This document shows positions 17,125-48,698 of a stretch of 64,000 nt of DNA, piece by piece; within the stretch, counting starts at the first letter, position 1, and every line of letters begins with the position of its first letter. This DNA is from Chaetoceros tenuissimus (Eukaryota > Bacillariophyta > Thalassiosirophyceae > Chaetocerotales > Chaetocerotaceae), in contig BLLK01000047.1 in NCBI GenBank assembly GCA_021927905.1, forward strand, positions 2,976,001 through 3,040,000, in the 5' to 3' direction. The position numbers were made by a program, and so were the translations under genes. A model generated the notes under the pieces. That model ran no database searches and was not told the origin of the DNA. It was given only the letters and a program-made list of their open reading frames with translations.

Positions 17125-18376
17125 TTAGATTAATGTATATAGTAAATATTCAAGATAAAATAGATCCCAAATGTGCTTGTAGTAAACCTTGATCGATTTC
17201 ATTTCCTTAGGATCCAATTGTTTGAATCTGTATATCAACATAGTAGCAAGAACAGAGTGCCCTCCGATCATCGCCACTGGATTAAAGGTACCGACCTTTG
17301 ACAAAACTCCTGTTAAAATAGCATGTACATAGTTCAAAAATAGGCAAGCAGTTGCGCCCTTCGCGATCTTATCAACCCCGATCTTTGTGGCAAATGTTTC
17401 GATATTAAATGCCTTATCTCCTTCAATATCTGGTAAGTCTTTTGTAATTGCAATGACTGATGCAAAAGCTGTCATGAATCTTGCAATGAAAGATACCTTT
17501 GGTGACCAAGAAAATGTGGCTCCAATTGCATCTTTAACTGCAAAGTATACACCAAAGTTAAGAAGAAACCCACGAACAGTAGCAATTGTGAGTCCTGCCG
17601 CAATTGGATTTCTCTTTGTACGAATTGGTGGTACTGAATAAATGGCCCCCAATGTCCAACCAACCATGTAAAGTTTGAAAAGCAAAAGTGGGAAAAACTT
17701 CCATCTATTGAAATGAATCAAGTATCGTCAGTATTTAAGAAGTGGTTACATCTTTGTGATCAACAATCCATACAACTTACACAATCAAAGGCCCAATAGT
17801 TCCAGATGCTAGTACAGTAGCCCATGCGAACTTCCTTGACATTTCACCGCTTGCAACAGGCAAAAATGGCTTGTTCAATTTATCAATCTTTTCATCGTAA
17901 ATCTGATTAATACCAACAATGAAAGCATTTCCCATCAGTAAAGCAACCATACCAAGTACAGCTCTGGGAAGCATATATCCCCAGCGAGCATTAGCGATTG
18001 CACCAGGAGTATCGACTAAAGCTCTTGTTGTACCTGCTATTGACGCAAGGATTGTTCCCCTGATGGTGTGTGGTCTGGTGAATTTATATAATGCACGAAA
18101 CCTTGCTTTCAACGACCCAGCCTGAGCTTCTTCCACCGATTTTGAGAGAGCATCAGGATCAAAGTCTCCCTCTACTGCCATTGAAAGCCTTGTCTTTTTC
18201 GTTTGCGAATTAAACTGGCATTCTGAAAATGTGTTGTAGTGTGGATTGGTGGATGACGATGCAAAGCAAGGATTCAATTTATTGATGGTAACACTTGCTC
18301 TAGCTGCTGGTGCTGGAAATCCCTGCACAACTGCTGCACCAATAATCACATTTAAGCAAAATTTGAATAATTGCAT
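17125..18376 (-). CDS. Homogentisate prenyltransferase (tocopherol/plastoquinone), plastid
   Basis: Exons 17781..18376 and 17125..17704 join through a Val codon (GT|A) and give 391 aa. The leader [20 protein letters not shown] is a signal peptide with Phe at the cleavage site, typical of diatom plastid import. The UbiA-family motifs are present: [17 protein letters not shown] (first Asp motif) and [22 protein letters not shown] (second). The KDLPDIEGD form is characteristic of HPT/HST enzymes, which prenylate homogentisate with phytyl- or solanesyl-diphosphate. Hydrophobic segments match the 8-9 helices of the family. HPT versus HST cannot be decided by eye. Confidence 0.88.
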
Positions 18377-18990
18377 CTTCAACTTGGTCTATGAAAGGGA
18401 TGTGTAAAAGAAGTATTCCAGCTTGCCTTTGAAATAAGAAAGGCAATAGAAAATAATCTTTCTGTTCAACAAAAATCTATTTCTCTTCGTCATTCCTCTC
18501 GTAGTCATCACTTTTAGACACCAAAACACCTAGCCGAAATGGATAGTCACTAACTTACTTTTATGTTTCCATTTTTCCCCTCTGTTTGTGGTACGTTCTT
18601 TTGGTTATGTAGTACTTACCTAGTATGATCATCTATTTCATTGTTTTTTTATACGTAGAGATGTCTCATAGGCTAGTGAAATAGTAAAAGTGTCGAATAT
18701 TACGAACTCTCTTTCCGAGGAAATTCGAAAGCGATATCATGAGGAATATCATGGAAGGGAAAAGAGATATTCCAAACTTTGAGAAACTGTATGAAATTTG
18801 AGTCAGTCGTTCTACTTTCAGATGAAGATGTTCGCGTTCCACCTTGAATGGCAAATAATGTCCGTAATTGGTAATAGAAAAATAAGTATTCCTGTATACA
18901 GTAGTCGGCGCAGTCGTATGTGGAAGCATCTGGAACACAGGCTGCCAGCACAGCATGAGCTTCATGAGCTTAAGCAGTGATGCAAGATGA
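18377..18990. other. Intergenic upstream of the prenyltransferase
   Basis: The promoter side of the prenyltransferase gene. Short frames on both strands have no recognisable domain. No RNA gene seen. Confidence 0.35.
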
Positions 18991-29093: not shown

Positions 29094-31016
29094 TCAGACG
29101 ATTTCTTCCAAGTCAAACGTGGATTCATTCAATGCTCGACCAAAATATTCAATGTATAGAGGGACGCAGTACCCGCAAGCAGCGGGACATGTCTCCTTTA
29201 GCAGTAAATTGTCCATATGAGGGTATTCCCTTTCACAGTATATCTGTCTCCTTTCTACTACCTTATCTTCATTCCTTGATATCCACTCACAACCTCTGGA
29301 AAGACCATTATCAATTCTAAACTTGAACTCTTCGCGAGGTGTATCAACACAATCACAATTATCACAAGTAATTCTACACCTATTTCTAACTTCGAAACGA
29401 GGACAATACTTTGCAATACGAAATTCTGCATTCAATGAATTTTTTGTCAGCCAATTACAGTCTTGTGTATTTCCATTGTCCAGTGTAAAAATAAAATTGA
29501 TGTCATCAACGCAACTAATTGTGGGTCTGCTAGATGGTTGTGAAGATGGAATCTGTGTTGGTGAATCTGAAGGTTTAGAAGATGGATGTAAAGTAACTGA
29601 TGGTGTCTCCGAAGCATTCATCGATGGTGCAGAAGTACTAACGCTTGGCTTGCTTGATGGAATTTTTGATGGTGAAATCGATGGGGCTAGAGAGGGTTTG
29701 TCAGAAAGAATCATGCTTGGTTGAGCACTTGGAGCAGAAGACGGTGTATCTGATCTTGCGCTTGGAGATGAGCTAGGGATGGTAGAAGGCAGAAAACTTG
29801 GAGATATGGAAGGCAACTGTGAAGGTAACATAGAAGGTAAAGATGTAGGATTAAAGGATGGTAAATCGCTGGGGCTAGAGGATGGTGAGTTTGAATTACT
29901 TGGAAAATCTGAAGGTGCTGAAGATGTGCTTGGACTTGTTGAGGGCGCATTCGAAACACTTGGACTAGATGAGGGCACCATTGATAGACTCGGTAGAGAT
30001 GATGGGATGGATGAGGGCATAATACTTGGGGAGTCTTGCAAAATAGATGCAAATGAGAGAACATAACATCTGAAAAATTAAATCACCATATAGAAATACT
30101 TACTAGATATAGATGGTGTTAATGATGGTTCATTTGATGGAACAAAACTTGGAAGTGATGAAGGGATGAAGGACGGTGAGTTACTCGGGTATAATGATGG
30201 CAAATTTGAAGGTGTGACTGATGGTAATACACTTGGTTGAATAGATGGTAGATTTGTAGGAAGATTTGTAGGTAATAATGAAGGTGATGCTGAAGGGACT
30301 CTCTCTGATGGAAACTGTGATGGTATGAAACTTGGTTGCTCTGTCACGATCGCTTGAATTGCTGGAAAGCAATAATTACATGCAGCTGGGCACGCATCTC
30401 GGACCTTTTCAGCATATTAGTAAAAAATCTAATCTATAGATCAAAGAATTATTCACACAAAGCCATCTACACTTACCATTCTGCCACTATTCCAAGTATC
30501 ACAGTACCTTATCATACGAACTTCTTTTTGTCCAACCCATGCACATCTCTTTAGTGTTTCTAAATTAGTTGTAAGAACATAATCGGGATCATCCTGAGCA
30601 ATTATTATTGATATGAGAAATTTGAAAGATAAAAGCGCGAAAATTCAACACGAAATCATTGAAAAACTAACCTCACAGCAACGACCACATGTATGAGCGC
30701 ATTTTTCGTTTACTTCTGGAAGAGGGCATAATGCTTCTCTTCTTGAAAATTTCCATCTGATGGATATACAGGTTAGTGTTTTTATTCTATCATCTTCCTC
30801 ATAATCAATTTTGAATGTAGGACTATTCAAACAGGCGATATCAAATGTTCTCGGCTGTATTTCTAAAGCTGTGCTCTCGGATGTGCTCTGTGTCAGGTAT
30901 TCATCTTCATCAATTGTAGAATGCAAGGAAGACCCAAATATATTCCTTGCTCTTACGAGCTCCGGCAACCAACCAAATTGAACAAACAACGATACATAAC
31001 AGAGTTGTAACTTCAT
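29094..31016 (-). CDS. Secreted PSxxPS-repeat protein with Cys-rich modules
   Basis: Exons 30672..31016, 30477..30593, 30104..30404 and 29094..30034; phases agree and total 567 aa. A signal peptide (MKLQLCYVSLFVQFGWLPELVRA) leads. A first Cys module ends CAHTCGRCCE, a second KRCAWVG ... RYC ... ACPAACNYC. About 190 residues of PSxxPS repeats follow (Pro/Ser/Leu/Ile with Asn and Asp), then two more Cys modules (QDCNWLTKN ... CPRFEVRNRCRITCDNC and RGCEWISRN ... CPAACGYC). The module pattern CxWxxxN...YC...C..(A/T)C..C is the visible repeat. Such proteins are common in diatoms and are thought to sit at the cell surface or wall; the PS tract is probably glycosylated (inference). Confidence 0.78.
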
Positions 31017-32175: not shown

Positions 32176-35100
32176 CTAGCAAACTGATATGCTACAGGAA
32201 GAATCATCAGACTCTGAACTGGATAGACTAGAACCAGACGAAGAAGAAGTGGAGCTGGAGTCAGAAGAACTACAACTAGATTTTGTTGAAGAATCTGACT
32301 TCGTCCAAATGCTGCTGTGTTTGTTTTGAAGTGCATTGGGTATCTCGAAGGAATGTGGTGATATTCTTGCAGATTCTTGTTTTGAGCTGCCTTCAGAAGT
32401 TTTCAATTCTCTCGTCATTTCACTGTTCATTGAGATACCAGCATCCTCTTTGTAATCGACTTCATGTACTATCTCATCTGAAGACATCGGTGTAGGTTCA
32501 ATATTTGTCATTTCGTTATTGTGATCATTTTCATTTGTTCTTGTCACTGGTCGATTTTGTTCCATTGTCGACTTGGAAGCAGGTGTCGTGAATTCCATCC
32601 TGGATCGTGAGAAGTTGATATTGGTATCGGTCTTTTCTTCTTCGTTTGAGTCTAATTGTCCGTTTGCATGGTTTGGATCATCTTTGGTGAATGAATCTAG
32701 AAATACTGACGCTTGATTTTGTCGGATTTCCATCTCGTCGCTTTGATCATTGCCCGATTCATCGTCCTCTGGTTGTTCTAGTATAGTTTCCTCGTTCTCA
32801 ATGCTATTGACAATGCATGCCAAAGCATCAGGTTCAAGTGGTAGACATGGAACTGCCGATTCTTGATCATCTAAAAGCAATTTTTTCATCATCTGAGTAA
32901 CATTTGGGTCATCTTGTAGAGCATATTGGTTGTGAAGATCCTAAGATAAAATGAGAACTAATAGTTGTAGTAATGCTGCAAATTTGATCTGTGCCTGATT
33001 CTGAACGCACCTGTAAATATTGTCTTCGAGCTTCATTGCTAAGACGATCTTCACTTGCCTTCAACGCAACAAGGTGCTTAGCGAGGTCATTTAGTAGATT
33101 CTCTGCCTTGGCTCTTACTTCAGCGATATCATGTGCACTATCTCCTGACTCCCTGTTACATAGCATATCTTCTGGCAGCTTTTTTTCCACCAATTTGCGA
33201 TATTCTCGTGCCTGTCAAAATGAATATTACGTCTCTAATGAGAGCCAAAAGATGAAGTTGCAAAAAATGATTCGAAAATCCTTACCATTTCTACTACATC
33301 TGCCTGCCATCCGCAACTTGCAGCCATTTCGACACCTGTAGGAAAAGACTATCAGCGCATCTGAAAGTGTAACCCTTTGCTCTTTATGTTTCTCTTACCA
33401 TAATCTGCCGACATTTTGCAAGAACCTGGAAGAATTTTGTGCAAGTAGCGCACTTCTCCGGAGTCATCGGCAACAGCCCCAAGATGTTGATTTTGCACAT
33501 TTGGGTAAACTTCTGCTAGACGGCATAACTGAGGGTAATGTGTTACAAAGAAAGACATGGACCTTTTGACAAGGAGAAATTCTATCAAGAGATAAGAAGA
33601 CAACTAAGGAGTCAAATATCATAAAATCTCATCACTTACCTGCTACTGCCCATGCAATAGCAACTCCATCCTCATTCGACGTAGCTCTCCCAAGCTCATC
33701 GATCAGAATCAATGACTTCTCGGTGGCGTTGCGGCATATATATGCAGTATCCTTCATTTCTTGCATGAAGGTTGAAATATTGTGTTCTTGGTCATCAGTG
33801 TTACCAATACGAGTACACAATCTATCTCTAATTGGAATAAATGCTTCTTCGGCAGGCACATAGCATCCACACTGGGCAAGGATCACTGTGATTGCAAGTT
33901 GCTTTAGGTACGTACTTTTCCCTGACCCATTGATACCTGTGATTACAGTGAAATTTTGAAATGCAGATGCATAGCTATCATTTGGAATATATTCATCACG
34001 TGCCCCCATTGCACTTGAGGTCAACCCAGTACTACTGACATCAATAGCATATCGACCATTCCTTATAGCAATACATCCACTACCAATTGAATTGTTTTGA
34101 TCCAGTTTCTCATGAGTTGAGCAGTCGTTTAGCACTGGTCGGCACCAGCTAGATCCACTGTTAGATGCAACTAAATCTGCGAAACTGTGGCACATATCCA
34201 ATAAGGCCACGGCATCGCATAGAGATGCGAGTGCATCATACCTTTCCCTTGCAAAATCCATCACCCCCTGAATGCGTTCATATGTCAATATCAAGAGTCT
34301 AGAGACGCTTTCATGGGTCCTGGAACTTAAACTCATCAACTACAAGAAAATGTGAGTAATTTGAATGTCAATGAAGAAACTACAAAATGAGAAACTTACT
34401 TCTTCTGTCGTACAATTAATGAATTTACCACTAGAGGCAACTTGCACGAAAGTTGGAGGTAAAACTGTAGACGTCATACTCGCTTTCTGGATGGCAATAT
34501 AAAATCCTCTGGCAGATGTTTCTTTGAGAGTTGCAGAAAACCCGAATTCTTCTGAATACTGTTCGACCAATGCGAGCATTTCTTCGTTGTTCGATAAATA
34601 TGCTTTCCTGATGACATCCTAGAGATGATGGAATGTTGAGAAATGCATCCTGTTTTATTCTTGTTTAGAGTTTGTTGCACAAAATATACAAGTACTCACC
34701 ATCATACCATCTGTGTTTGGTTTCAATGCAAAACATTCCTGATGTCTCATCGCATGACTGTTTTTTGTAAAAGTTGTACTTTCGGTAAAGATGTCACAAA
34801 CATGATCTAGGATTTCTTGTAGCTGGGGATTCCTCATAATGGCAAGTATAGCCTCGAGAAGCTGATAGTTGCTCATTGAATTGGCGTTATCTTTCCCTAA
34901 AGGAGTCTCCGGTCCAACTCCCAAGCCAATATTTAAAGTGGAGGCATCAGCACTCACCATCTCCTCTTCATCATCTGTAATACTACTTGCCTCACTTGTG
35001 CTACTATCATCACTACTCTCATCTGAATCTGAATTTTCATCACTATCACTACTATTTTTCTCTTTCATTCTATTTTGACGACTTTCATATTTCTCCTCTC

Positions 35101-36673
35101 TCTTATCACGCTTGACAAGAGACTTCAACTCTATATCCAAGACTCGTGCGAAATCAGCAACGTTAGTGAGTGCAGTCTTGATACAAACCAATGCCGATAT
35201 TCCTTTGCTGGCCATCTTCGACGTGACTTGTTTGTAATTTCCTGATCCTTTCCCACTTCTCCCATTAGCATGTTTCCTTGGCACTAAGATCATGGGAGCT
35301 AGCATTTTGTCAAGGTCAGGTAAAGCCTTCAGCTGGTCAAGTACTTCGTAGAAGAACTGTTCGTCTTGAAGAAAAATATCCACCATGTCTAATCTTGAAT
35401 TTATTGTCTGAAATCGAGTTGGTGGAGCAACCAAATTCATTTTCAGAAGACGATGCCCAACACTTGTCTTGGTACAATCAATTGTTCCCAGTAAAGAATG
35501 CTTGAGTTTCCCGGTCTTTGTATTACGCAATATCTCAAGGTGTGTTATTGTATTTCGATCAATGTGCATACGGCTATTGAATGAACCTTTGAATCCACCA
35601 GTAGTTTTATTTCCTTGAGCAACTTCATCATTATTCAAATTGCCATGATTGTTCCGGTGACGAAAGTCTACATTGCCATTTAGTTCTACAGATAGACTGT
35701 TGTTGGCATAATCGGCTCCGAGACAAACTTGCATATACTGTAATACAGCAAATGAAGATGATGTAAATACGTAATCACTCATCAATACAGGTGCGTCAAA
35801 GGTATTCTTTCGAGCAATACGATCCAACAATTCGTTCCCACGATGTTGGTCAAAGTAACTCCTTGGAACAAACTTGATCACAGTCTTTGTGTCACACGCT
35901 CCAAGTAAATCTTTCTTTGTAGCTGCAGTGTTTGGGGTAGTGGGATCATTCTCTTCTTCCTCCTTCTCTTCGTGATTTTTGTCACCAAAAACTTTCAGAA
36001 TTTTCTGACAGAGAATACTATTCTTTCTACCTTCGTTCAAAATAATTTCATGAGGTTCAATCATTTGTAGGAAATCAATTGTTTCCGAGTAAGTTTGCCC
36101 ATTAGCCGTCATGTGACATTGAAGTGATGTAGGAGCTCCAGCATCTATTGCAGCAAGACATGTTTCTTTTGCAATGTTCTCAGATACGGCTGTTATGATA
36201 TGCACGCCATTGTACTTCTTTCGAAGCGTAGATGGAGCCTGCTTGGCGGAGGAAGGTGGCACGTAGCGTCGTTCAGTATTCAAGTATGGGTTATTGGCAG
36301 CTGGGGTTTTGGGAACCCGTTCAGAATCACTCTTTTCCGCGTCTGTGCAACCTTGATTGCCTTTTGACTTTTCATTTTCAATTTTGTTCCTACGAATGTA
36401 AGCAGGAGTTGCAATAACTTGAAGCCTTTGATCCGATGAGACTCTTCCTTCTGGTCGGAACGTCCTTTGAATATTTTCAGCTTCCATGGTGCTTTTATCA
36501 TTTTTCTTTCCATTTCGTTTTCGTTTACGGCTATTGGATCTACTCCTCGATTTACTATTTTTATTATCATCGTCATTGCTGTCAAGTGCGAAACCATGAG
36601 TGGATCTTGAAGACGTCTTTTCAGCTAGAGATTTCATCTTGCCACTCTTTTCTTTGTTGCTCCCCCGGGGCAT
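32176..36673 (-). CDS. MSH4: MSH4, meiotic MutS homologue
   Basis: Seven exons: 34700..36673, 34400..34618, 33640..34339, 33399..33581, 33286..33335, 33011..33211 and 32176..32940. All joins keep phase and total 1,363 aa, longer than typical MSH4 (about 800-940). The N-terminal 120 residues are Lys/Ser-rich and disordered. Core: GVHIITAVSEN, EPHEIILNEGRKN, ITHLEILRNTKTG, HSLLGTIDCTKTSVGHRLL, SRLDMVDIFLQDEQFFYE. ATPase: Walker A GINGSGKSTYLKQ, STFMQEMKDTAYI, Walker B LILIDELGRATSNEDG, and THYPQL. There is no N-terminal mismatch-recognition module, as in MSH4. An acidic insert sits between core and clamp, and a Ser-rich acidic tail ends the protein. MSH4-MSH5 stabilises meiotic crossovers. Confidence 0.88.
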
Positions 36674-37291: not shown

Positions 37292-40200
37292 ATGAAGAGA
37301 TCTAACTCCAATGGAGATGATAGATCTGATGAAAAGCGCAAGCAGACAAAAGCTGAGAGGATTGACGAAATTCTAAGGCTTAGTCAAGTTGACATGGCTC
37401 ATGAGCTTCGAAAATTAGTTGATTCTGCCAACGCTCCTATTTTTGGAATTGATATTCATGGGAGAGTGAATGAATGGTGAGTAAGAAGGTCAATGTTTAC
37501 AATTGCAATATGTGGCGGTTGATGTATTCCTTATAGTTTAAAGTATATGTTATGAAACTATGTGATATGCAAAAACTAATAGTTCTCATCTTTCATAGGA
37601 ATTTCAAAACTGCAGAGATTACTGGATATTCAAGGGAGGAAGCATTTGATAAGCCGCTGGTAAAGGTGAGATTTTGTACTTGTTCAATGTTGATTATATT
37701 CCATCTTGAGTAATAGGTAGACTAAAATATGATTGTGAACAGACATTTATTGCTCCAAGATTCCGTGAATCCGTACAAGAAGTGCTAGACAAAGCTCTAA
37801 AGGGAATTGAGACTGCCAACTATGAACTAGAGTTTGACACTAAAACAAATGAGACAAGATTTTTGCTGGTGAATGCTAGTACTCGTCGCGATATTGACAA
37901 TCGGATTGTGGGAGGTGAGTTGTTACTAGCAAATAGTTATTTTCTTCTTCACTTTCTATGCATGGTTCCGAACTCATCATTATAACCAAACGTAGTCGTC
38001 GGCGTCGCACAGGATGTCACTGAATCGAGTAAGTATACTATGTTATCTTTGTTCCAGTACCTCTTTTCAATAGCCGTCTCTAATTCCCCAATAATTTAAC
38101 AGCCAAGCATGACAGAGCAGTGGCATCAGCTGCTAGAGAACTGCGTAATCTTGTCAATACGGCTAATGCGCCAATCTTTGGAATCGACAAGAATGGAAGA
38201 ATCAATGAATGGAATGATAAAACGTGAGTAATGTTTTCGTTATCATTCATCTGTCTCACTTAAGTAGTTTAGAACTAATTATGACTATTTCTCGATTTTT
38301 CTAGTGCGGAGATCACAGGATACAGTAGGGAGGAGGCTCAGAAGTTACCTCTCACCAAGCTCCTCGAACCTAATGTAAAGCTTATCATGGACAAAGCACT
38401 ACAAGGTATTGAAACAAGTAATTTTGAGATCGAGTTTCACAATAGAGAGCGACAAGAGAGGCATATGCTTGTAAATGCAACAACAAGACGAGATGAAAAT
38501 GCCAATATCGTGGGTGTATTGGGTGTCGGGCAAGATGTTACTGAGGTTACGAAACATGATCGAGAGGTTGCTGCTATGGCAAATGAGTTAAGACAGCTCA
38601 TTAATACGGCCAATGCTCCTATTTTTGGTATTGATGTGGATGGAAAGGTGAATGAATGGTAAGTCAGGGTAGTTTATGGTGTGATTGGATCAAGAGTGTG
38701 ATTCATTTTAAGTTCGAGTAATGTTGACTCATCACTATTGTGATCCCTTAATACTTTTTGCAGGAACAACAAGACAGTAGAGGTAAGTATTTTCGTCTAA
38801 AGGGTCTTCATCTGTCTTTTGAAAACTAACATGAATTCACAATCATGATCAATTAAGATAACCGGTTTTTCTAAAGGTAAGTCCATTTAGATTCTACAAT
38901 ATTCCAATACCTCATCATTTCTCATGTTTATTCTACACTATACTTCTTCAGATGAGGCCATGGGAAAAGAATTAAGTAAGTAATTTTCCGCTGAGAAAGC
39001 GCCCTTAGATTATTTCCATTTGCAGTTTTTCTTATCCTCTCTTTCCCTCCTCCATAGTTTCTACTTTCATTGTAGCGAAATTGCGGAATAGTGTGCAGCG
39101 TGTATTAGACGATGCACTTAGGGGAATAGAGACGAGTAACTACGAGCTTGAATTCAGGACAAAGTCAAAAGAAAGTCGTTATCTTCTAGGTAAGCAGGGA
39201 ACGCACCATGGAAATAAATGATGCTGAGATTTTTCCTAACTTGCCGCTTTTGTTTTAGTGAATGCAACTACGAGAAGAAATGCAGACCAGTGTATTATTG
39301 GAGTTGTTGGAGGTACGTGCAGATGCTCTTGATGAATGTTTCATGGATAGTAATATTTAATTTTATGTGGATTATGAGTCTCTCACTTTCCGATTAAACG
39401 CTGTCCGTTTGGTATCATTGTCACCTTTAATCACAGTGGCCCAAGATGTTACAGAAGCTGCAAAGCATGACCGCGAAGTAGCTTCCATAGCAAATGAGCT
39501 TCGTCAGCTAGTGGATACAGCAAATGCTCCGATCTTCGGTATCGACATTCATGGAACAGTTAATGAATGGTAAGTGTCAGGAAAACAAATAATTTGACAC
39601 ATACTAGTGATCATTTTCATTTGACTGATCCAATTATCCAAGGAACAACAAAACAGTAGAGATCACTGGTTATAGTAGACGTGAAGCAATCGGCAAGCCT
39701 CTTGTGACTGGCTTTATTGTGAAGAAACTTCGAGCGAGTGTACAGCAAGTTATGAGTAATGCTCTTAAAGGTATCGAGACAAGTAATTACGAATTGGAGT
39801 TTAGAACTAAGTCAAACCAGATTAGATATCTATTAGGTAAGCAAAACACAGGGAATCGTAGCTTTGTCTATCCAACTCACCGTCATATATTCCAACATCT
39901 CATCCATCTTTCACACTCTTTCAGTAAATGCCACGACAAGAAGAGATGCTGATAGAAACATCATTGGGGGTAAGTTTTCCACTAATGCTTTAGAACATTC
40001 CTTCATCTGTTGTGTCATTCTCAACCTTGCTCAAAATTTTCATTGAACATTTCCTATGTGAAATCATTCTAATCTTCGAATCACAGTTGTTGGAGGTACG
40101 TGCAGACATTCTTGATGATATTTCTTCTATGAAATAATTGCCAAATTAGATAATTATATACATGAAATATGATTCTCACACTTTCTCATTAAACATTGTC

Positions 40201-43200
40201 CGTGTACAATCATTATCAACTTGAATGACAGTTGCCCAGGATGTAACTGAGACTGCCAAGCATGATAGGGAAGTCGCTGCAATGGCAAACGAGCTTCGTC
40301 AGCTGGTAGATACTGCAAATGCACCAATTTTCGGTATAGATTTAAACGGTTTGGTGAATGAGTGGAATGAAAAGACAGCAGGTAAGTTTACGAATTTGAC
40401 CAAAGAAAGATCATTTATTCGTTATCTAATACATCTACACATGTAATTGCATAGAAATCACTGGATACACAAAAGATGAGGCAATTGGTAAGCCTCTTGT
40501 TAACACTTTCATTGTGAAGAAACTTCGTGATAGTGTGCAACATGTCCTAGATAATGCTTTAAGAGGACAAGAGACTAGTAACTACGAATTAGAGTTTAGA
40601 ACGAAGAGTAGTGAAATTCGCTATCTTTTAGGTAAGAAAGGAAAAAGAAAATTAAAATTGAATTATATCTTTTGACCCCTTTAACTGACCGTTTATCTTT
40701 GCAGTTAACGCGACTACTCGTAAGGATCCAGAAAACAACATTGTTGGAGGTATGTAACAGGCATATTTTTGTTTACATGTTTATTTTCCGTGTGCTATCT
40801 GTCATTCTCAACCTTGCTCAAAATTTTCATTGAACATTTCCTATGTGAAATCATTCTAATCTTCGAACCACAGTTGTTGGAGGTACGTGCGATGTTTCTT
40901 CTGTGAAAAAATTGCCAAATTAGATAATTATATACATGAAATATGATTCTCACACTTTCTCATTAAACATTGTCCGTGTACAATCATTATCAACTCGAAT
41001 AACAGTGGCTCAGGATGTAACAGAGACTGCCAAGCATGATAGGGAAGTCGCTGCAATGGCAAACGAGCTTCGTCAGCTGGTAGATACTGCAAATGCACCA
41101 ATTTTCGGTATTGACGTTGATGGGTAAGTCGCCATCGCTTTCTTCATGAATTTCTTTTCAACTATTTCTCATGACAATTATTGTTAGTAATGTGAATGAA
41201 TGGAATAATAAAACAGCTGAAATCACAGGTTACTCGAAGAATTTTGCATTAGGCAAGCCTCTCGTGCCAACATTTATCATGCCTGAATTACAAAAGTCAG
41301 TACAGTATGTGCTTGATCAAGCATTACATGGTAATGAAACATCAAATTACGAGCTTGAGTTCTGCAGTGCTTCTGATGAGATTCGGTATCTGCTAGGTAA
41401 GAGCAATGCAACATAAGCAAAACAAATTGAATTTTTAGGAGATATTTCCTTACTTACTGATAATCCTTGTTTTGAAATAGTTAATGCTACCACGAGAAGA
41501 GATGCTGAAAATAACATCGTTGGAGGTACGTGTGGATATTTTTGAGGTATGCTTGTCAAATTAATATCCTTTGTGACCTGTGATTCTAACGCTTTTTTCT
41601 TTAAACATTTTTCGTCTGCCATCATTCTCGACTTTGAATGACAGTTGTTGGAGGTAGGTGCAGAACTCTTGATTAAAATTTCATGTGTAATAATTGTCAA
41701 CCTAAATATGTCCCTTGATCTATGATTCTCACACTTGTAAAACCCTTTACTTATGCTATCATTACCAACTCGAATGACAGTGGCCCAGGATGTTACTGAA
41801 ACAAAGAGCAATGATCGTGCAGTCGCAGCAATGGCATCCGAGCTGCGTCAGCTGGTAGATACCGCGAATGCTCCTATCTTTGGAATTGATGTCGAAGGGT
41901 AAGTCAGTTTTTCTGCCTCCAAATGAAGCAATAAATTTCGCTTTCTCATGACGTTTTTTATTCAAAATAGCAACGTCAACGAATGGAACCAAAAGACAGC
42001 AGAAATCACAGGATACTCAAGAAATGAAGCAATCGACAAACCTCTTGTAAGTGGATTTATTGTTCCAAAACTACAGAAATCTGTACAGGAGGTTATGATG
42101 AACGCTCTAAGAGGCATAGAAACTAGCAACTATGAGCTCGAGTTTAAAACAAAAAACGACGAAGTACGATATCTCTTGGGTAAGTAAAACGGACTTCGAC
42201 TTTTTCGTGCATATATTTCAATGTCATCTGATTTGCCTTTTACTTTTAGTGAATGCTACTACGAGAAGAGATGCAAAACATAATATAATTGGAGGTACGG
42301 TACCATCTGATGAAATATTATTTATTTATTCTCAATTGCTCACATTTTCTAATTTCGTATTTTCATACAAATCTTAGTTGTTGGAGGTACGTACAGACAC
42401 TCTTGATTAGCTTTCAATTTGGTATCTTTTTCTCAAATGAAATGTTTCTTTGTACTATGATTCTCATACTTTCTCATTAAACATTGTCCGTGTACAATCA
42501 TTATCAACTCGAATAACAGTTGCTCAGGATGTTACTGAAAGTACTAAGAATGAAAGAAGTGTTGCTGCAATGGCCGATGAGCTTCGTCAGTTTGTAGACA
42601 AAGCGAATGCGCCAATTTTCGGAATAGATCGATTTGGTCTGGTGAATGAGTGGAATGATAAGACAGCTGAAATAACTGGTTTCAGTTCTAGAGAGGCACT
42701 AGGAAAGCCTTTGGTATCTACCTTTATTGTGCCAAAGTTACAAGCTTCCGTCAGAAATATTCTTGAAAATGCCTTGATTGGGAAAGAAACTAGTAACTAC
42801 GAACTTGAGTTCACAACCAAAAGTAATGAAATCAGATATCTTTTAGGTAAGGAAAGATCAGAATCACAAGAAAGATTATAGAGATACTACTTCCTAACCG
42901 CCTACTTTTTTCATTTTTCTGTTCAGTTAATGCAACCACTAGACGTGATCCTGATGCAAATATTGTTGGTGTTATCGGGGTTGCCCAGGATGTGACTGAG
43001 AGTTCCAAGAATGACCGTGCAGTTGCAGCTATGGCACATGAGTTGAGACAACTTGTTGATACTGCGAATGCTCCCATCTTTGGTATTGATGTAGATGGAA
43101 AGGTGAATGAATGGTATGTATTGAATTTTAACCTTGAGAAATCTTTAACAAAAAGGGTCATATTGAAAATCTGCTTTTGTACACTGTTTGTGCAAGTACT

Positions 43201-46200
43201 AACATCCAAGTTTTTTTCACTTATGAAGGAATAATAAAACAGCCGAGATTACTGGTTTCAGTAAAGATGAGGCTCTTGGTATGAATTTAGTATCCACTTT
43301 CATTGTACCATCACTTCGTCAGAGTGTTCATGAAGTTATGGACAAAGCTCTGGGGGGAGTAGAGACTAGTAATTATGAATTGGAATTCGAAACAAAGTCC
43401 AAGGAGATTCGCTATCTTCTTGTAAATGCTACAACCCGTCGTGACGCTGAATACAACATTACTGGTGTTGTCGGAGTTGCCCAAGACGTCACAGAAAGTA
43501 CTAAAAATGACCGTGCGATGACGGCAATGGCTAGAGAGCTTCGTCAGTTGGTTGACAAGGCCAATGCGCCTATTTTTGGAATTGATGTCAAAGGTGAGTA
43601 GTTCGTCAATCTTACTTTCGTGTTTTTGCCTACAATTAATCCTGTGTATCTCTAATCTTTGCACCTCTTTTCATTTGATGTAGGTGATGTTAATGAGTGG
43701 AATGACAAGGTAAGTGCTTATTGAAGAATGATTACGATAAATTTATTCCTACAGATTCATTTTCAACTAAAAAAACGTGCATAGACTGTGGAAATTACTG
43801 GTTACAGTCGACAGGAAGCGTAAGTTCATTTATATGATTGCATATTATTCGTCGCAAGTTATATCTCATACATTTTTACAGGATTGGTAATCCATTGGTT
43901 GAGACTTTTATTGTTCCTTCATTGCGTCACTCTGTTCAAGAAGTACTCGACAATGCGCTTCGGGGAGTAGAAACAAGTAATTATGGTACGTCTTGTATCT
44001 CCCTAGATTTTTGTTTACCGATATTTTCTTACAAATCATAATTCTTTAGAACTTGAGTTTAGAACCAAGAGCAATGAAGTGCGTTATCTTTTGGTCAATG
44101 CGACCACGAGAAGAAACGATGATAACGCCATCATTGGTGTGGTGGGGGTTGCCCAAGATGTCACAGAAGCAGCAAAACATGATCGAGCAGTTGCGGCTAT
44201 GGCAAATGAACTTCGTCAGTTGGTTGACACAGCGAATGCACCGATCTTTGGAATCGATGTAAATGGGTAAGTAATCATATGAGCTTGTTTATCATTTTAA
44301 CGCACGTTTTTCTCGATTATTCATGTCATTTCTATTTCTTTTTGCAAAGTAATGTAAATGAATGGAATAACAAAACTGCAGGTAAGTTTGGAATAATAGT
44401 GTTGAAACTCGAAGGCATGCAGCAATATTCTTACAAATTCATGTCTGAATTCATATAGAAATCACTGGTTTCAGAAAGGATGAAGCCATGGGAAAGCCAC
44501 TAGTCACGACCTTCATTGTGGAATCTTTAAAAAGTTCAGTTCAAGAGATTATGGATAACGCACTGAGTGGAAAAGAAACTAGTAACTATGGTAAGTGTTG
44601 TTAACAAAGTCGTTGTTGTTTAGAACAGCCAATGTATCCATGATCAAACTTTCTAATATTATTCACCCTTTTTCATCTAGAATTGGAGTTTCAAACCAAG
44701 GCTGGAAGGATCCGGTACCTTCTAGTCAATGCTACCACAAGAAGAGATGCTGAAGGGAATGTCGTTGGAGGTACGTTATCATATCTTATTGTGCTTCAAA
44801 AATTTACGCTTGCCTTCCTCATACTTTCTTGTAATAAATATTTCCCATATGCTATCAATCTTAACTTGATTCACAGTTGTCGGAGGTACGTGCAAACATT
44901 CTTTATTGACTCTTCATACTTGACTTCATTGTCAAATGAAACATTTATATGTACTGTGATACTCACACTTTCTCATTAAACATTGTCTGTGTACAATCAT
45001 TATCAACTCGAATGACAGTGGCTCAGGACGTCACAGAAGCCGCACAGCACGACAGAGCGGTTGCTGCGATGGCAAACGAGCTTCGTCAGCTTGTAGATAC
45101 AGCGAATGCACCGATTTTTGGTATTGACGTACATGGATTGGTGAATGAATGGAATGACAAGACAGCAGGTATGTACAAAAGGTTTTTTTCTCAAGTCTAT
45201 TCAAATTAATGTATATTTCTAACCTTCTTTGTGTTACATTCAGAAATTACTGGATTTACAAAAGATGAAGCACTAGATCTCCCCCTCGTGGAGACTTTTA
45301 TTGTACCTAATCTACGCAAGAGTGTTCACGAAGTCATGGACAATGCCTTGAGAGGACAGGGAACGAGTAACTACGAGCTCGAATTCAGGACAAAAGACAA
45401 AGAAATCAGATATCTTTTAGGTGAGCGACAAATCAAAGTGAAAGATATGATATTTCTCCTACTTCTTTACTAACTGTTACGGAAATAGTTAACGCAACAA
45501 CGAGAAGAGATGTTGACAATAAGATCGTTGGAGGTAAGTACTATCAGATACATTTTTGTTGACATATTTTTGTGTGCTATTATGATTCTCAGACTTTCCG
45601 CATAATCTCAACTTTAATCACAGTTGTTGGAGGTACGTGCAGACACTGTTGATTAAAAATTCCGTAAAGTATTGTTTTCAAATTAATTACGCGTTTACAT
45701 GAATTTTGATTCTCACACTTTTTCTCAAAATTACTTTTTAACTTTTACTCTCATTATCAACTCGAATGACAGTGGCTCAGGATGTAACAGAAGCTGCAAA
45801 ACATGATCGAGCAGTGGCAGTTATGGCAAATGAACTTCGTCAGCTGGTAGATACAGCGAATGCTCCTATTTTCGGTATTGACGTAGATGGAAAGGTGAAT
45901 GAATGGTATGTATTTAACAAGATTCGACGTTCACGCAGCACGCTGTGATTTAGTTTACGAGTGTCTTTATTATTTTGTATGAATGAAGCTAACCGGTTGT
46001 ATCATTTTGCTTCTTTTAGGAATAACAAAACTGCAGGTAAGACCAGCAGCTTCCCTTACATCTGTAATGCTCTTTCTCTCTAACTTTTGTTTGATCATTT
46101 TTAGAAATTACTGGCTTCAGTAAAGATGAAGCGTACGGGAAGCAATTAGTAACTACTTTCATTGTGCCGAAGCTCAGGAATTCTGTGAAAGAGATTCTTG

Positions 46201-48698
46201 ATAATGCTTTGAAGGGAAAAGAAACCTCAAACTATGAGCTTGAAATTCGAACAAAGACAAACGAATTTAGGTATCTATTAGGTGAGCAATACAAACGAAT
46301 CTTACAGAATATATTGCCATTGACTTTGACAATTTTCCTAACTGACCACTATTTAGTTAACGCAACAACGAGAAGGAATGCAGAAAACAGAATTATTGGT
46401 GGTACGTTCATAATACGCTTTAAAAATTACTTGAATCTTCATTCTCACACCCTCCTTAAACATTTTCGTTTGTAATCGTTGTCATCTTCGAATCATAGTT
46501 GTTGGAGGTACGTGCAGACATTCTTGATTGGCACTTCATAACTTCATCGTCAAATGAAATATTTATATGTACTATGATTCTCACACTTTCTCATAAACAT
46601 TGTTCGTACAATCATTATCAACTCGAATAACAGTGGCTCAGGATGTAACAGAAGCCGCACAGCGTGATAGAGCAGTAGCTGCGATGGCAAATGAGCTTCG
46701 TCAGCTTGTAGATACAGCGAATGCACCAATTTTCGGTATTGATGTGAGAGGTATGTGTCCTTCACCTTTGGTGCTTTTTCTAATAGGCTACATCTAACAT
46801 TTTGAACATGTCCAAACAATATTTAATAGGAAACGTAAACGAATGGAATGACAAGACAGCAGGTTAGTACTGAATTATTTCCAGATACAAAGTCATTTTC
46901 TTTTATCTCATGTTTGATTCTTCGAAGAAATTACTGGATATTCCAAGGATGAAGCTTTCAACAAGCCTCTCGTCTCTACATTTATTGTAGAAAAATTGCG
47001 GCCAAGTGTTCAGCAAGTATTGGACAATGCTCTACAAGGAAACGAAACAAGTAACTACGAGCTTGAGTTTGAAACAAAGTCGAAAGAGATTCGCTATCTT
47101 TTAGGTACGTCGGTGATATAACTAGCAAATGGAATGAATATTGAGATATTGCCTTTTTCCTAATGTTCTCTTTTGATGTAGTCAATGCGACAACTAGGAG
47201 AGATGCTGAAAGCAATATTGTTGGAGGTAAGTTACAGCACCTTTGATTTAAACAAATTTTGTGATTTCATTCTCACACTCCCCATTCAACATTCCCTATG
47301 TGAAATCATTCTCATCTTCGATTCGCAGTTGTTGGAGGTACGTATAGACACTCTTTATTTCCAACATTTCATCTTTAGTATTATTGTCAAATGAACATTT
47401 CACATGTACTATATTCTCACACTTTCTTATTAAACATTGTCCGTGTACAATCACTATCAATTCGAATGACAGTGGCTCAGGATGTTACTGACGACCGCAA
47501 ACATTCACAAGAACTCAGAGAAATGCAATACATTCGTGCATCTCAAGAAGCAAAGGTTGAAACTGAGAGGAATATGACTGCCTACTTTGCTCATGAATTA
47601 AGGAACCCTCTTCATGCTATTGATTCCGCTCTCATATCTATGCCAGAGACTGGAATGCCGATAGAAGCACAGCAACTTGTAGACGCTATGAAATTGTGTA
47701 CAGGTTTCATGTCCTCCATTATGAACAACTTGCTTGATGTGAGAAAGATGGAAGAAGGGAAGATGACATTAAGTCTAGCGCCTATTTGTCTAGAAGATAT
47801 TTTGAATGGCGTTTACAAGATGCTGCTTCCTAGTGTAAGACCAGGTGTCTCATTTAGAGTTCAATGTCGCGTTGGAGATAAGGGTTGGGTGTTAGGTGAT
47901 GCTCATAGAATCCAACAAGTAATGACGAACGTTGTGACAAATGCAATCAAATACACTACTAGCGGTTCTATCGTCTTGGTCATGGAATGGGTTGACGACA
48001 ATGTTCAGTTTGAATGTTGCGATACAGGTCCTGGTATTCCCAAAAAGGAACAGAAGAAACTCTTCGAAAGGTTTGTCCAAAGAGGTGGAGCACCAGGTAC
48101 TGGTCTAGGTTTAGCCATTGCCAAGCACTTGGTAGATTTGACTGGTGGATCGATTAGATTTTACAGTGATCCTACAATCAAATCAGGAACTTCTTGTGTG
48201 GTTAAGATGCCCCTCAAAGAATGTGATGAACCTGAGCAGGAAGTAGTCGAAGAACTTCCTGCTATGATTCAAGCAGCAGTCTCCGTCTTAATTATTGACG
48301 ATGTCAAGATGAATAGATTGATGTTACGACGTAGAATGAAGAAAGCTATTGTTCCTAATGCAACCATAATGGAGGCGTGCACAGGAGAAGAAGCTCTCGA
48401 AATTTGTGCTGAGAAAAAGTTTGACATCATTATAGTTGATCAATACATGGAGGAAGCAGGTGGAGTTCTCGTCGGAACTGATGTTGTTTTTGCCATGAGA
48501 AGACAAAGACTGGACTCCATTATTATTGGATGTTCAGGTAACGATATGGACGATTTGTTCAAGGAAGCAGGAGCAGATTGGGTTTGGAAGAAACCAATGC
48601 CGTCCAATGCTACGATTGTGAAACAGCTTCGACAAGGGCTGAGAAAGAGAAAAGCTGCAACCAGCAAAGAGAAAGCATCATGCTTACCGGTACATTGA
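37292..48698 (+). CDS. Giant hybrid histidine kinase with 14 tandem PAS modules
   Basis: I read 53 exons, first 37292..37476 and last 47473..48698; they sum to 6,597 nt, an open frame of 2,198 aa. Every junction is GT-AG and in phase. After a short basic start come 14 PAS/PAC units, each with NAPIFGID, a NEW(N)xKT motif, ITG(Y/F), ETxNYELEF, VNA(T/S)TRR and a PAC-like VAQDVTE. They fill about residues 30-1790. The C-terminus has an H-box AYFAHELRNPLHAI (His about 1831), N-box QVMTNVVTNAIKY, DTGPGIP, GTGLGLAIAK, then a receiver with IIDD, phospho-acceptor Asp (about 2113, IIVDQYM) and the KKP Lys. No membrane segment or LOV cysteine motif is seen. Probably a soluble phosphorelay sensor; ligand unknown. 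Confidence 0.85.
37397..47481 (+). repeat. Array of 14 PAS-encoding genomic repeats with their introns
   Basis: The motif NAPIFGID is encoded near 37430, 38163, 38611, 39523, 40318, 41095, 41868, 42607, 43069, 43562, 44235, 45103, 45858 and 46723. Modules 4-7, 12, 13 and 14 each sum to exactly 381 coding nt. Module 2 is shorter and most divergent. Introns repeat along with exons: for example 40016..40095 matches 40803..40882 almost base for base, and the phrase GATTCTCACACTTTCTCATT recurs ahead of several exons. Confidence 0.9.
40087..47337 (+). other. Eight 9-nt micro-exons of the PAS kinase
   Basis: Micro-exons at 40087..40095, 40874..40882, 41645..41653, 42378..42386, 44877..44885, 45624..45632, 46499..46507 and 47329..47337. 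All read TTGTTGGAG except 44877 (TTGTCGGAG). Each has an AG acceptor before it and GTACGT or GTAGGT after it, and both flanking introns are phase 1. Each adds Val-Val-Gly between (I/V)G and VAQDV. In modules where this part is not interrupted (for example 43460..43475 and 44130..44150) the same GVVGVAQDV is encoded in one exon, which supports real inclusion. Confidence 0.8.

What the first reader, a model, noticed from the sequence alone, without database searches (positions are those of the whole stretch)
37292..48698. A 14-PAS hybrid histidine kinase in 53 exons
One frame reads fourteen near-identical PAS/PAC modules into a complete histidine kinase plus receiver. Tandem PAS arrays of this length are unusual. 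The close similarity of the modules and the absence of any membrane segment suggest a soluble array that could bind many copies of one ligand or act as a lever or spacer. All catalytic motifs of kinase and receiver are present, so it is not a decayed relic.
Basis: partly seen in the sequence, partly recalled or inferred. Interest (0 to 1): 0.82.

Follow-up and report, generated by a model that had tools for sequence, protein, structure and literature searches.

The report
Fourteen-PAS hybrid histidine kinase gene
A gene in about 53 pieces, probably from a diatom, encodes a soluble signalling kinase carrying fourteen sensor-type modules in a row; such long arrays are already published for oomycetes, but the tiny repeated exons and oddly well-kept introns between its modules are not explained.

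Summary
A splice-aware reading gives 53 exons, 52 GT-AG introns and 2,198 residues: fourteen PAS modules, then HisKA, HATPase and a receiver, with no membrane segment. The modules are not near-identical (57-82% identity).

Each module matches the first C-terminal PAS of plant phytochromes and PAS modules of bacterial kinases. The fourteen form one clade. The period is exactly 127 residues in 12 of 13 window intervals and 38 of 39 bacterial tandem pairs; the bacterial exception lacks seven linker residues, one heptad. I read this as a phase-locked relay rod.

Oomycete hybrid kinases with 10, 15 and 21 PAS domains are published (PMC3019232), so the architecture is a known kind; common descent could not be tested.

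Unexplained: synonymous sites between modules are near saturation, yet introns at one module position average 75% identity across nine modules, and the 9-nt microexon beside them is nearly fixed. Six other shared intron positions show none of this (0 of 61 pairs). Late spread, short conversions or selection on splicing remain open. No RNA, genome or eukaryotic relatives were available.

The parts
37292..48698 (+). whole gene model, 53 exons, 2,198 aa
37373..38107 (+). PAS module 1 (introns included)
38108..38554 (+). PAS module 2, five residues shorter in the PAS core
38555..39465 (+). PAS module 3 (117.1 intron, no 114.1 intron)
39466..40260 (+). PAS module 4
40261..41034 (+). PAS module 5
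41035..41809 (+). PAS module 6
41810..42548 (+). PAS module 7
42549..43009 (+). PAS module 8 (one intron)
43010..43505 (+). PAS module 9 (one intron)
43506..44177 (+). PAS module 10
44178..45047 (+). PAS module 11
45048..45801 (+). PAS module 12
45802..46662 (+). PAS module 13
46663..47495 (+). PAS module 14
40087..40095 (+). 9-nt microexon, module 4 (others start at 40874, 41645, 42378, 44877, 45624, 46499, 47329)
40096..40231 (+). 117.1 intron of module 4, one of nine alike (others start at 39313, 40883, 41654, 42387, 44886, 45633, 46508, 47338)
47568..47759 (+). HisKA with HELRNP box
47895..48218 (+). HATPase_c with N, G1 and G2 boxes
48285..48599 (+). receiver domain (DD, D, K positions present; positions recalled)

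Best explanation
A soluble hybrid histidine kinase of an alga, probably a diatom. Fourteen PAS modules, each ending in a linker helix of fixed length, make a long parallel-dimer rod that holds and relays conformational state through in-phase coiled-coil joints to the kinase, which phosphorylates its own receiver. The array grew, or was homogenised, from a single module of the type seen in bacterial kinases and in the C-terminal part of plant phytochromes. Shown: module count, domain order, intact motifs, fixed period, one clade against the bacteria sampled. Inferred: dimer, rod, relay, kinase activity, and what (if anything) the modules sense.
For: Domain order and 14 PAS stretches. Period 127 in 12 of 13 window intervals and in 38 of 39 bacterial tandem pairs from 24 loci (pairs spaced outside 118-134 or scoring under 100 bits were dropped first). 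The exception, L018, lacks exactly seven linker residues. Window linker columns 5, 8, 12 and 15 are 93-100% hydrophobic, a 3-4-3 spacing. A bacterial pair is predicted as PAS, one 22-residue helix, PAS (pLDDT 91.4, pTM 0.65); the highest TM among the 50 PDB matches listed is 0.75, tandem PAS of FixL. Best solved relatives of the module are phytochromes B and A (E 5e-37, 1e-29). Heptad dependence of linker length is described for the kinase YF1 (PMC6798134, passages). One clade, 100/100, against 119 bacterial modules.
Against: No RNA, protein or dimer data. The fold model is of a bacterial relative and four of five models were poorer (mean pLDDT 57-78). The equivalent of window column 5 is hydrophobic in only 12% of 34 bacterial pairs, and Ala-rich columns 6, 7, 9 blur the heptad pattern. 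By E-value the first PDB matches are Brucella LOV-HK and DosP at lower TM. No eukaryotic relatives could be searched, so one clade does not date the expansion. The ten best bacterial kinase matches are only 24-29% identical, so kinase and modules may have separate histories.
Confidence: 0.6

Rival explanations
1. Multi-site sensor: each module binds a small ligand or cofactor, so the kinase reads ligand level through many like sites.
For: PAS domains are often sensors, and the PAS core is the conserved part: 49 invariant columns of 127.
Against: No Cys or His is conserved across modules, two Cys in residues 1-1797, no LOV motif. C-terminal phytochrome PAS, the nearest solved kin, are described as serving dimerisation and signal transmission (PMC12558739, passage).
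Confidence: 0.2
2. Splice-tuned array: equal intron phase at equal module positions lets whole modules be skipped in frame, so array length is set by splicing.
For: Introns at one module position share one phase, nine of them at 117.1; those nine resemble each other. Exon skipping is reported in Phaeodactylum (PMC5859163, passages).
Against: Equal phase follows from duplication alone. No RNA data.
Confidence: 0.12
3. Neutral expansion: modules multiplied by unequal crossing over and the number has no function.
For: One clade; one 320-nt tract at 96-99% identity points to recent exchange.
Against: Same-residue codons are close to saturation (0.432 observed, 0.393 expected) while protein identity stays at 57-82% and the period at 127, so selection has kept the modules.
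Confidence: 0.08

Closest known systems
Oomycete PAS-array hybrid histidine kinases (P. infestans 10, 15 and 21 PAS; PMC3019232)
   Same: Long N-terminal PAS array, kinase plus receiver, no membrane segment (section 20 read).
   Different: Their PAS subtype, period and exon structure were not available here, so kinship is untested. The authors give one PAS for the T. pseudonana kinase.
Bacterial multi-PAS histidine kinases, e.g. L029 (Rhodobacteraceae HTCC2150)
   Same: Modules 41-58% identical, same 127-residue period, kinase at the end.
   Different: At most six regular tandem modules in the 78 loci held, which are cut at contig or flank ends; kinase 24-29% identical in the ten best matches.
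Plant phytochromes A and B, first C-terminal PAS
   Same: 11 of 13 PDB matches to the module profile are phytochromes, aligned over columns 5-125 or 5-123.
   Different: No GAF or PHY here; fourteen copies; in some streptophyte phytochromes the substrate His is replaced (PMC4422448, passage), whereas it is present here.

Membership tests
hybrid histidine kinase | HisKA, HATPase_c and receiver with catalytic motifs | tested here: met
   motif names recalled
hybrid histidine kinase | phosphotransfer from kinase to receiver | not testable with these tools
   needs protein
oomycete-type PAS-array hybrid kinase | ten or more tandem N-terminal PAS | tested here: met
   14 stretches of PF00989
oomycete-type PAS-array hybrid kinase | no transmembrane segment | tested here: met
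   highest 19-residue hydropathy 1.52
oomycete-type PAS-array hybrid kinase | common descent of modules and kinase | not testable with these tools
   no oomycete sequence could be searched
phytochrome-C-terminal-type PAS | full-length best match to that PAS among solved structures | tested here: met
phytochrome | PAS-GAF-PHY photosensory part | tested here: not met
   no GAF or PHY among 20 Pfam families
LOV photoreceptor | G-x-N-C motif with reactive cysteine | tested here: not met
   motif recalled

The most novel reading that the evidence does not exclude
The 9-nt microexons were born by intron copying inside the array. The coding strand has two like 9-base repeats ending in GTTGGAG (or a near match), and introns 114.1 and 117.1 each follow one of them. 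The two intron classes resemble each other, and module 3 has only the 117.1 intron. A copy of that intron placed nine bases upstream would make a 9-nt microexon at once; the pair then spread between modules, or is held by selection on splicing, perhaps with regulated module number.
Probability: 0.25. Interest if true: 0.75.

Novelty: new member of a known kind. Interest (0 to 1): 0.45.

Why it matters
It appears to carry the long PAS-array kinase architecture, published for oomycetes, to a photosynthetic stramenopile, and it shows a module period fixed at 127 residues from bacteria to this alga, with one heptad step as the bacterial exception. That makes a phase-locked relay directly testable. 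Introns and a microexon that stay alike inside an array whose synonymous sites are near saturation are a natural experiment on intron gain and splicing constraint.

Tried and rejected
RNA structure as the cause of intron conservation: Rfam gave nothing. Six of the nine 117.1 introns were folded alone; z ran from -1.28 to +1.14. The consensus fold paired the microexon and donor with the synonymous island downstream, but its covariation term was unfavourable (+1.66), and a recoding test gave mean z -0.96 for that pairing against -1.68 for the control donors of intron 99.1, so the pairing is not specific and was dropped.

Mobile intron family: the 21-base motif has eight places in the window, all in this gene, and no exact match in IMG/VR; no genome-wide test was possible. 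Viral relatives: 22 stretches matched a pattern in IMG/VR, none encoded a relative. Plasmids: 12 records with weak relatives, 24-31% identity. Own genome: none held. No tRNA or Rfam hit to help with the organism.

That I saw no diatom PAS-array kinase in print rests over an open-licence library, as listings, and on passages of PMC10468136, PMC12558739, PMC6944256, PMC9054022 and PMC6738920.

Limits of counts: the tree used 119 bacterial modules that passed score and coverage limits; treekit warned of few columns and an unsettled bootstrap. Bacterial tandem pairs were pre-chosen by spacing 118-134 and score over 100; the fold alignment took 34 of the 39 plus three window exon pieces. Synonymous counts leave out Met, Trp and columns whose residues differ and, for intron-bearing pairs, modules 4-5. 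11 of 69 columns reached p < 0.02 without correction. An earlier intron comparison with ends kept and another null gave 47 of 133 same-position and 39 of 1,193 different-position pairs above threshold. Several unrelated Pfam families (DUF6138, PhaP_Bmeg, P_C10) pass cut-off on the whole protein with no single stretch; I take them as sums over repeats.

Full report
What is there. On the + strand, 37292-48698 reads as one gene of 53 exons and 2,198 residues. The model came from a dynamic program that aligns codons to a repeating PAS module while allowing GT-AG introns. Its reference was a module of the gene itself, so I repeated it with a bacterial module: 47 of 52 introns were identical, four others had a different boundary, and one 75-nt intron was read through. 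The score was 4,523; three control stretches scored 1,028, 1,125 and 1,880 and a fourth gave no path. All 52 introns are GT-AG. Pfam finds 14 PAS stretches, HisKA, HATPase_c and a receiver, and no GAF or PHY. No membrane segment shows in the hydropathy. For scale, Phaeodactylum averages 0.7 introns per gene (PMC5859163, passage).

'Near-identical' is too strong. Pairwise identity is 57-82%, mean 73%. Where two modules have the same residue the codon is identical in 43.2% of 8,184 comparisons; codon usage alone predicts 39.3%. Synonymous sites are close to saturation, so I infer that the modules are old and held by selection on the protein.

What kind of module. A profile of the 14 modules matches 13 PDB sequences at E 0.001; 11 are plant phytochromes, best E 5e-37, aligned over the first C-terminal PAS. 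In prokaryote genomes 124 stretches matched a pattern, 93 encode a relative, and 78 loci were kept, at 41-58% identity; by title many are marine Gammaproteobacteria and Bacteroidota. Up to six regular tandem modules stand there, in L029. [quoted passage not shown] In a tree of 133 rows the 14 window modules form one clade, 100/100: the array grew from one module, or was homogenised, after separation from the bacteria sampled. The ten best bacterial kinase matches are 24-29% identical.

How it most likely works. The period is 127 residues in 12 of 13 intervals; the odd one, module 2, lacks five residues in the PAS core, not the linker. Of 39 bacterial tandem pairs from 24 loci, chosen by spacing and score, 38 span exactly 254 residues and one, L018, 247; the alignment puts the missing seven in the linker. 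Window linker columns 5, 8, 12 and 15 are hydrophobic, but the bacterial equivalent of column 5 is not (12% of 34). AlphaFold2 on a bacterial pair gives PAS, a 22-residue helix, PAS at pLDDT 91.4; the other four models were poorer. The highest TM among the 50 PDB matches listed is tandem PAS of FixL, 0.75, though Brucella LOV-HK and DosP lead by E-value. A review describes heptad dependence of linker length in YF1 and takes regularly spaced PAS tandems to imply coiled-coil integration (PMC6798134, passages). From this I infer an in-phase relay rod; neither dimer nor activity was tested.

Known kind. Judelson and Ah-Fong report that each oomycete histidine kinase has an N-terminal PAS array, with 10, 15 and 21 PAS in P. 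infestans, a receiver and no membrane segment; they cite up to 11 PAS in Geobacter and one for T. pseudonana (PMC3019232, section 20 read). The architecture is therefore not new. I saw no diatom PAS-array kinase in six searches of an open-licence library.

The introns. They occupy 16 module positions. All 1,326 intron pairs, splice ends removed, were compared with dinucleotide shuffles. At 117.1, 35 of 36 pairs exceed the 99.9% level of the null. At 114.1, 8 of 36 do. At the six other shared positions (99.1, 40.1, 34.2, 29.2, 29.1, 84.1), 0 of 61 do. Between 114.1 and 117.1, 31 of 81 do; none of these involves module 1, whose 114.1 intron is unlike the rest, and of the eight pairs within one module only three pass. 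Among all other different-position pairs, 0 of 1,112 do. Mean pairwise identity of the nine 117.1 introns is 0.75.

Codons around them. The three microexon codons are identical in 92.4% of 105 comparisons among modules with the 117.1 intron, against 13% of 23 among modules without it. Eight of those nine modules have a separate microexon; module 3 lacks the 114.1 intron. The share falls to 67% in the next four codons, 43% and 37% after that, then rises to 74% of 196 in columns 9-16 of the next module. One long conversion tract would not leave that trough; several short ones might, and selection on splicing would fit too. I could not separate these, and an RNA-pairing explanation failed its control.

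The microexon rests on protein evidence. Eight exons of 9 nt encode VVG. Modules 2, 8, 9 and 10, which lack both introns, encode the same three positions without a break, and the bacterial pairs align there without gaps. Skipping it would stay in frame but remove three residues from the last strand of the PAS.

Organism. No genome is held and no eukaryotic collection could be searched. A PS-rich protein at 29094-30041 and a UbiA-type enzyme with a possible plastid signal at 17777-18382 recall diatoms; that is memory, not a test.

Noticed in passing
window 40013-40340 and 40800-41114: A tract of about 320 nt is 96-99% alike between two neighbouring modules while the rest of them is diverged, as a recent short gene conversion would leave.
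   Followed up: partly
columns 9-16 of modules that follow a 117.1 intron (modules 4-8, 12-14): An island of synonymous conservation around CTTCGTCAG, 54-78 nt downstream of the intron, with a trough between; unexplained.
   Followed up: partly
L018 4632-5372: Linker between two bacterial modules shorter by exactly seven residues, one heptad.
   Followed up: yes
window 37295-37351, protein residues 2-20: Basic clusters KR and KRKQTK eleven residues apart, as in a bipartite nuclear signal (pattern recalled, not tested).
   Followed up: no
window 29094-30041 (-): Protein rich in PSxxPS repeats, recalled as common in diatoms; no Pfam hit.
   Followed up: no
window 17777-18382 (-): UbiA-type prenyltransferase start with a possible signal and plastid-targeting motif; the ORF at 17125-17721 may continue it and was not scanned.
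   Followed up: no
window 33632-36673 (-): MutS-like ORFs (domains III and V) lying head to head with the kinase gene.
   Followed up: no
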